Assembly: GCA_017504585.1 (NCBI GenBank)
Contig: JAFVQX010000071.1
Location: 1 to 42,977, forward strand
Source: Lentisphaeria bacterium
GTDB lineage: Bacteria > Verrucomicrobiota > Lentisphaeria > Victivallales > Victivallaceae
DNA length: 42,977 nucleotides
Reading direction: 5' to 3'
Made by a program: the position numbers and the translations under genes. The notes beneath the pieces are model-generated. The model ran no database searches, was not told the origin of the DNA, and saw nothing but the letters and a program-made list of their open reading frames with translations. Shown here one piece after another: positions 28,850-41,219 of this stretch (within the stretch, counting starts at the first letter, position 1; every line of letters starts with the position of its first letter).

Positions 28850-28876
28850 AGATAAACTCCATTTTTGTTTTGCTTT

Positions 28877-29120
28877 GTTCCCGATAAAGGTTGATATGGG
28901 AGCCTTGGGGAAGAGGGAAAGAACCTTTTTAAGGAAAGGTTCTTTCCCTCTTCCCCAACTTGTCACGGCGTAGCCCGCAGGGCGAAGACGGAACCCCATC
29001 ACCCTTTTCCAAACCTTTTATTGGCATTTATCTATTTGTTACACAAATAGATAAATGCCCTTTAAGTTTTGAAAAGATTTTATTCAACATCTTTACTGTT
29101 AGTCAACCGATATTGGGAAC
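28877..29120 (+). repeat. MITE-like dispersed repeat, copy A
   Basis: A 244-base element shared with 40992-41200. Its ends, GTTCCCGATA and TATTGGGAAC, are near-perfect terminal inverted repeats (9 of 10). Inside lie a 24-bp perfect hairpin (28905-28928 / 28935-28958, TTGGGGAAGAGGG arms) and a 17-bp perfect hairpin (29023-29039 / 29043-29059), with a weaker third hairpin near the end. Copy A has an extra ~35 bases between the first and second hairpins. It encodes nothing. It lies between the divergent dppA and the beta-helix gene. Confidence 0.85.
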
Positions 29121-29201
29121 AGAGCCTTTTGTTTTTGCTATAAGATACAAGGAGAAAAAATTATTGCAAATTTTATTTCTGTAAAAGTTGCTTGCAATTT
29201 A

Positions 29202-40983: not shown

Positions 40984-40991
40984 ACAGCTTT

Positions 40992-41200
40992 GTTTCTGAT
41001 AAAGGTTGATGTGGAAGTCTTGGGGAAGAGGGAAAAACCTTTTCAGGAAAGGTTCTTTCCCTCTTCCCCAAACCCCATCACCCTTTTCCAAACCTTTTAT
41101 TGGTATTTATCTATTTGCTCTGCAAATAGATAAATACCCTTTAAGTTTTGAAAAAAACTGATCCAATATCTTTGCTGTTTAGCAAACGGGTATTGGGAAC
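40992..41200 (+). repeat. MITE-like dispersed repeat, copy B
   Basis: A 209-base copy of the element at 28877-29120, same orientation. It retains the first hairpin with one lost base and has the second as 41102-41118 / 41122-41138. In that stem two base pairs differ from copy A on both sides (C-G to T-A and T-A to C-G), so pairing is preserved. It lacks the 35 bases that copy A has extra. It fills the gap between two convergent genes. Confidence 0.85.
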
Positions 41201-41219
41201 ATGGTCAAACAATCAACCT

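What the first reader, a model, noticed from the sequence alone, without database searches (positions are those of the whole stretch)
28877..29120. MITE-like repeat with compensatory changes in its hairpin
The element occurs here and at 40992-41200 with near-identical order, terminal inverted repeats (GTTCCCGATA / TATTGGGAAC) and two long hairpins. In the second hairpin two pairs changed on both arms (C-G to T-A, T-A to C-G), so structure seems selected rather than just inherited. It has no coding capacity, and one copy lies in a divergent and one in a convergent gap.
Basis: seen in the sequence. Interest (0 to 1): 0.65.

Follow-up and report, generated by a model that had tools for sequence, protein, structure and literature searches.

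The report
Jumping DNA repeat with triple-strand motif
The two repeats are copies of a small, gene-less jumping DNA element that is widespread in gut Lentisphaeria; its paired hairpin changes can arise from a DNA-copying error alone, but a neighbouring stretch that matches the first hairpin in the pattern needed for a triple-stranded fold hints that the fold itself is kept.

Summary
Both window copies (28872-29125 and 40987-41205) belong to a non-autonomous transposon (MITE) family: at least 65 places in this genome, more in all four same-genus genomes, and the same ends in 22 of 137 genomes of the order (reversed-pattern control 0). No transposase with these ends was found.

The paired changes in hairpin 2 are also real: 33 both-arm against 7 one-arm cells, at 10 of 17 pairs. 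They do not by themselves prove selection. Loops occur as reverse complements (14 of 27; 3.3 expected) and mismatches show no G-T over A-C excess, as expected from DNA template switching.

Unexpectedly, the C/T-rich spacer after hairpin 1 is the parallel complement of that hairpin's purine arm. It co-varies with the arm across 22 arm types from several genera (0 of 20,000 permutations). The rule is that of an intrastrand DNA triplex: arm G to C 190/193, arm A to T or A 170/174 (hand-anchored alignment). Template switching cannot make mirror copies, so a fold at hairpin 1 looks selected. Whether the triplex forms, and what it does, is untested.

The parts
28863..28870 (.). copy 1, left target-site duplication TTTTGTTT
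   Evidence: exact 8-bp match to 29127-29134
28872..28895 (+). copy 1, left terminal inverted repeat GCTTTGTTCCCGATAAAGGTTGAT
28905..28928 (+). copy 1, hairpin 1, purine-rich 5' arm TTGGGGAAGAGGGAAAGAACCTTT
   Evidence: perfect 24-bp stem here, whereas most other copies keep a one-base asymmetry
28935..28958 (+). copy 1, hairpin 1, 3' arm
28959..28991 (+). copy 1, optional insert CTTGTCACGGCGTAGCC...GAAGACGGA, placed between 3' arm and third strand
   Evidence: present in some copies and absent in others, always at this position
28992..29013 (+). copy 1, proposed third strand AACCCCATCACCCTTTTCCAAA (parallel complement of the 5' arm of hairpin 1)
29023..29059 (+). copy 1, hairpin 2 (17-bp stem, 3-nt loop)
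29102..29125 (-). copy 1, right terminal inverted repeat
29127..29134 (.). copy 1, right target-site duplication TTTTGTTT
40987..41010 (+). copy 2, left terminal inverted repeat (2 mismatches in the 15-bp core)
41020..41043 (+). copy 2, hairpin 1, purine-rich 5' arm
41051..41070 (+). copy 2, hairpin 1, 3' arm
41071..41092 (+). copy 2, proposed third strand, directly after the 3' arm (no insert)
41102..41138 (+). copy 2, hairpin 2; pairs 3 and 17 differ from copy 1 on both arms
41182..41205 (-). copy 2, right terminal inverted repeat, decayed; target duplication no longer clear (5 of 8 by eye)
   Evidence: for the flanks

Best explanation
Each element is a non-autonomous DNA transposon (MITE) of 205-254 bp. 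Shown: terminal inverted repeats beginning R-GCTYTGTTCCCRATA, 8-bp AT-rich target duplications, insertion into gaps between genes and once into another copy, and many copies in several genera. Inferred: a DDE-type transposase encoded elsewhere acts on the ends; it was not found. The interior is a conserved cargo with a three-part left hairpin (purine arm, pyrimidine arm, and a spacer that is the mirror image of the pyrimidine arm) and a second, AT-rich hairpin. Shown: the arms of hairpin 2 change together, and the spacer changes together with hairpin 1. Inferred: the two arms are kept alike mainly by template switching of DNA polymerase within the palindromes. Inferred: the spacer is kept by selection for an intrastrand triplex in single-stranded DNA, in which the minus strand folds as third strand - purine arm - pyrimidine arm (purine motif, class I of Holder et al.). 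Such a fold could expose or protect the element when single-stranded, stall the replication fork, or be recognised during transposition. Of these I think a role while the element is single-stranded at the replication fork is most likely, but this last step is conjecture.
For: MITE. Target duplication: per-position identity 0.61-0.76 over exactly 8 positions and 0.31/0.37 just outside; 26 of 75 copies at 7/8 or better against 2.0 expected; 89% AT. Nested insertion at L004:622-843 with duplication TTCCCTTT inside hairpin 1 of another copy. Arms changing together: hairpin 2 99.1% paired, 10 of 17 pairs changed on both sides, covariation score 0.187 against 0.072 in shuffles and at most 0.054 when slid. 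Template switching: 14 of 27 loops have their reverse complement in the same stem class, 3.3 expected; no G-T excess; arm homogenisation plus spacer inversion is its published signature (PMC8604942), and PMC8794818 shows that it makes compensatory pairs. Triplex rule: complement of the 5' arm fits its own spacer better than other types' spacers, 303.5 against 220.9 +/- 8.2, 0 of 20,000; it holds separately in the own genus and in other genera and in an automated selection (216 against 168.9 +/- 6.1). Arm G pairs with spacer C 190/193, arm A with T 138 or A 32, arm C with A 4/5. These are the G.GC, A.AT and T.AT triads of the purine motif as defined in PMC4666352.
Against: No transposase with these ends was found, so mobilisation in trans is inferred. 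No physical evidence of a triplex exists. The 22 types were picked and partly aligned by hand; the automated selection gives the same verdict with a smaller margin. Related types are not independent, so permutation counts overstate significance. Some copies carry only the core without the terminal repeats, which the simple MITE picture does not explain. The stem of hairpin 1 keeps a one-base asymmetry in most copies, so template switching has not homogenised it everywhere.
Confidence: 0.7

Rival explanations
1. The element encodes a structured RNA (small RNA or untranslated-region element) whose stems are kept by selection at the RNA level.
For: Strong two-arm changes in hairpin 2; strong RNA folds; copies lie between genes; copy 1 begins 22 bp upstream of a start codon.
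Against: No excess of G-U over A-C mismatches on either strand (15 against 20 distinct). No orientation preference relative to neighbouring genes is evident in 26 copies with approximate gene calls. No Rfam match. A-to-T pair flips such as pair 12 of hairpin 2 (17 against 15 sequences) have no single-step wobble intermediate.
Confidence: 0.15
2. The mirror relation between hairpin 1 and spacer reflects a G-quadruplex on the minus strand (or an i-motif on the plus strand), not a triplex.
For: Eleven of 22 types have four G-tracts of three or more on the minus strand.
Against: The other eleven types lack them, including subfamily B of this genome, yet keep the register. The matching also covers the A-run against T-run, where a quadruplex asks for nothing.
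Confidence: 0.12
3. The hairpins are bidirectional transcription terminators or other protein-binding sites that have been spread by a transposon.
For: Hairpin 2 is followed by a weak T-run and scores as terminator-like in both copies. Nine of 26 copies appear to lie between converging genes.
Against: Six copies lie in divergent gaps, including copy 1. Hairpin 1 has no T-run after it. A terminator does not need a mirror copy of one arm.
Confidence: 0.1
4. The mirror relation is an accident of low-complexity purine and pyrimidine tracts, inherited in blocks.
For: The tracts are simple; some types fit no better than shuffled spacers (L036+ 156/500, L264+ 58/500).
Against: Own spacer beats other types' spacers of the same composition. 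The flank on the other side of the hairpin does not match (5.5 against 9.3). Common descent alone would make the fit decay, not follow the arm.
Confidence: 0.15

Closest known systems
Bacterial MITEs in general (for example Correia elements, RUP, MITEAba12; reviews PMC2229807, PMC10969869)
   Same: Short, no genes, terminal inverted repeats, target duplication, many copies between genes, ability to form stem-loops.
   Different: Different ends and sequence; no parent insertion sequence identified; the interior carries a hairpin plus a mirrored third strand, which I did not find described for a MITE in the papers searched.
Intrastrand triplex motifs of bacteria (TM-ECO and the ITxF set, PMC4666352)
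   Same: Purine arm, pyrimidine arm and third strand in one DNA strand; purine-motif triads G.GC, A.AT, T.AT; many near-identical copies between genes; no strand bias.
   Different: The E. coli motif is 37 nt and was reported as not associated with transposons; here the motif is part of a transposon family, is longer (about 15 triads in the purine part) and co-varies among three strands. On the minus strand the order corresponds to class I; TM-ECO is class II.
Template switching at inverted repeats (PMC8794818, PMC8604942, PMC7202029)
   Same: Homogenised arms and inverted loops.
   Different: This is a mutational process, not an element; it cannot create the mirrored third strand.
REP/BIME palindromes with RAYT transposases (PMC2817692)
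   Same: Intergenic palindromes in many copies.
   Different: Here there are terminal inverted repeats and an 8-bp target duplication; RAYT genes were not looked for.

Membership tests
MITE (non-autonomous DNA transposon) | terminal inverted repeats | tested here: met
   15-bp ends, 131 hits against 8 control in the genome; paired ends in 75 copies
MITE (non-autonomous DNA transposon) | target-site duplication | tested here: met
   8 bp, sharply bounded profile
MITE (non-autonomous DNA transposon) | short, without coding capacity, many copies | tested here: met
   205-254 bp, longest stop-free stretch 64 codons; at least 65 places
MITE (non-autonomous DNA transposon) | a related autonomous element with the same ends | tested here: inconclusive
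   four transposase families (ISL3, IS1595, IS4/5, IS6) searched, none found with these ends; none of 113 ends with at least 700 bp inward was judged by eye to lead into a transposase, without a family search of the adjoining frames; draft genomes
ISL3-derived element | ISL3 transposase with the same ends | tested here: not met
   no ISL3 in the four genus genomes examined; intact relatives in the family end in TTCTGCACTTTGTG
IS6, IS1595 or IS4/IS5-derived element | matching transposase in the genus | tested here: not met
   the IS4 relics found in two genomes have ends CTGTCCGGTAAAAATT
intrastrand DNA triplex motif | sequence rule for three strands with canonical triads | tested here: met
   364 of 372 aligned cells, hand-anchored; permutation tests
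intrastrand DNA triplex motif | short loop between duplex and third strand | tested here: inconclusive
   0-3 nt in most copies, about 34 nt in copies with the insert such as window copy 1
intrastrand DNA triplex motif | forms the triplex in vitro or in cells | not testable with these tools
   needs CD, NMR, DMS footprinting
structured RNA family | match to a described family | tested here: not met
   only a tRNA in the window reaches a gathering score
structured RNA family | wobble pairs tolerated on the functional strand | tested here: not met
   G-T 15 against A-C 20 distinct mismatches
REP/BIME with RAYT | RAYT (Y1) transposase in the genome | not tested
   no search left

The most novel reading that the evidence does not exclude
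An intrastrand DNA triplex is the selected core of an order-wide family of bacterial mobile elements: the third strand co-varies with both strands of the hairpin, which would be comparative evidence that a DNA triplex is functional in bacteria, probably during replication-linked or single-strand stages of transposition.
Probability: 0.35. Interest if true: 0.8.

Novelty: new variant of a known kind. Interest (0 to 1): 0.55.

Why it matters
Two-sided changes in a stem are usually taken as proof of a selected RNA. Here a high-copy DNA element shows the same pattern together with inverted loops and no wobble preference, so it is a natural test case for template switching as the cause. The mirrored spacer is a different matter: no known copying error makes mirror copies, so its co-variation with the hairpin offers a way to test whether bacteria keep DNA triplexes under selection. 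Earlier work (PMC4666352) showed such motifs and linked them to genome instability, but without a mobile carrier.

Tried and rejected
Transposase by family: ISL3, IS1595, IS4/5, IS6: no match to the ends. IS4 relics next to a copy have other ends. Long end-to-end pairs as candidate autonomous elements: the 623-812 bp pairs examined are composites or hold nested repeats. Empty sites in same-genus genomes: the flanking genes of the two copies are not contiguous there, so no filled/empty comparison was possible. Phage, plasmid and viral collections: no relative of the element; one phage contig carries a similar hairpin plus mirrored spacer. Loop inversion in hairpin 1 is rare (two cases), so the loop argument rests on hairpin 2. 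First TSD guess of 9-10 bp was wrong: the profile shows 8 bp with one variable base between it and the ends. Pfam domains of neighbouring genes helped only to place the organism.

Full report
Observation. The two stretches are near-complete copies of one repeat. The ends are R-GCTYTGTTCCCRATAnnGGTTGAt and its inverse, about 5 bp outside the coordinates given. Order from left to right: inverted repeat, hairpin 1 with a purine-rich 5' arm, in copy 1 a 34-nt insert, a C/T-rich spacer, hairpin 2, inverted repeat. Neither copy can code for a protein of note.

Copies and hosts. The window lies in a draft genome of 2.94 Mb in 213 contigs. At least 65 separate places in it carry part of the element (merged); all four same-genus genomes have copies. 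With up to one mismatch, the extended end occurs in 22 of 137 genomes of the order, up to 170 times in one, and never in the reversed-pattern control. Named records with exact ends are Lentisphaerae or Lentisphaeria metagenome assemblies; the sampled sources named in the titles are sheep colon and goat caecum.

Mobility. Among 75 copies with both ends, the flanks agree at 61-76% over exactly eight positions and at 31-37% one position further out; 26 copies agree at 7 or 8 of 8 against 2.0 expected when flanks are dealt anew. The duplications are 89% AT. One base, mostly a purine on the element side, lies between the duplication and GCTYTG. Copy 1 has a perfect duplication; copy 2 has lost it. 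One copy sits inside hairpin 1 of another with duplication TTCCCTTT (L004:622-843). No transposase with these ends was found, so the partner is unknown. Some copies consist of the core without the end repeats; this is unexplained.

Paired changes. In 32 distinct hairpin-2 sequences of the genus, 99.1% of cells are paired, 10 of 17 pairs have two-sided changes, and the covariation score is 0.187 against 0.072 in shuffles and at most 0.054 when the partner is slid. Against the consensus there are 33 two-arm and 7 one-arm cells; dealing out 3' arms anew gives at least 37 one-arm cells.

Cause of the paired changes. If an RNA were selected, G-U pairs should be commoner than A-C mismatches on the functional strand. 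Over both hairpins and all genera the distinct mismatches are 15 G-T and 20 A-C. Loops of hairpin 2 occur together with their reverse complement in the same stem class in 14 of 27 cases, 3.3 expected. Homogenised arms and inverted loops are the reported signature of template switching at inverted repeats (PMC8604942), which can create compensatory pairs in one step (PMC8794818). I therefore give this process the larger share. It is an inference: no mutation event was observed, and the loop control with plain complement scores 12 because many triplets are symmetric.

The mirrored spacer. The sequence right after hairpin 1 is the complement, read in the same direction, of the hairpin's 5' arm. 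Example, subfamily A: arm TTGGGGAAGAGGGAAAA, complement AACCCCTTCTCCCTTTT, spacer AACCCCATCACCCTTTT. Subfamily B: arm TTGAGGAGGGGAAAAA, complement AACTCCTCCCCTTTTT, spacer AACTCCACCCCTTTTT. In an automated selection of 23 arm types the fit of own spacers is 216 against 168.9 +/- 6.1 when dealt anew, 0 of 20,000, and the other flank of the hairpin does not fit. In 22 curated types it is 303.5 against 220.9 +/- 8.2; it holds in the own genus alone, in other genera alone, and for the purine half alone (0 of 20,000 each), and in seven remaining types of other genera (4 of 20,000). In hand-anchored alignments arm G faces C in 190 of 193 cells, arm A faces T in 138 and A in 32 of 174, arm C faces A in 4 of 5. 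Read on the minus strand these are G.GC, A.AT, T.AT and T.CG, the first three being the purine-motif triads of intrastrand triplexes (PMC4666352). The order third strand, purine arm, pyrimidine arm is class I of that paper. A quadruplex would need four G-tracts, present in 11 of 22 types only. Template switching copies a strand as its reverse complement and cannot make a mirror image, so I take the co-variation as a sign of selection on a three-stranded fold. The permutation counts overstate significance because types are related, and the curated list was my choice.

Surroundings. Copies lie between genes in converging, diverging and tandem settings (approximate gene calls). [quoted passage not shown] this suggests but does not show an effect on its expression.

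Verdict. A new MITE family in gut Lentisphaeria, with a cargo that follows the rule of an intrastrand DNA triplex. What is shown: ends, target duplication, copies, co-variation of arms and of spacer. What is inferred: mobilisation in trans, template switching, the triplex itself and any function.

Noticed in passing
L090:1934-2486, L150:630-872; flanks in L012 and L029: A second MITE-like repeat with ends near GGGGCTGTTGCAAAACT is nested in copies of the first.
   Followed up: no
window 28959-28991 and other copies: An optional insert CTTGTCACGGCGTAGCC...GGCGAAGACGGA sits exactly between the 3' arm of hairpin 1 and the mirrored spacer in some copies; variants of it occur in elements of other genera.
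   Followed up: partly
L165:3197-3593 and other SIG96 loci: In isolate SIG96 the same ends enclose a quite different interior of 397 bp, so the ends have been combined with different cargoes.
   Followed up: partly
L364:8204-8254 (minus strand), IMGVR_UViG_3300038407_000030: A viral contig carries a hairpin with purine arm followed by the mirrored spacer (CCCCCATCCCC), without the element's ends; the motif may be wider than this transposon family.
   Followed up: partly
G000 contigs C173, C177, C65, C110, C43 and others: Many contigs of the draft genome end inside or next to a copy, so the repeat breaks the assembly and the copy count is a lower bound.
   Followed up: no
L017, L044, L059, L060 and others: Copies of the core (hairpin 1 to hairpin 2) without the terminal repeats, with unrelated flanks; perhaps decayed, perhaps an independent unit.
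   Followed up: partly
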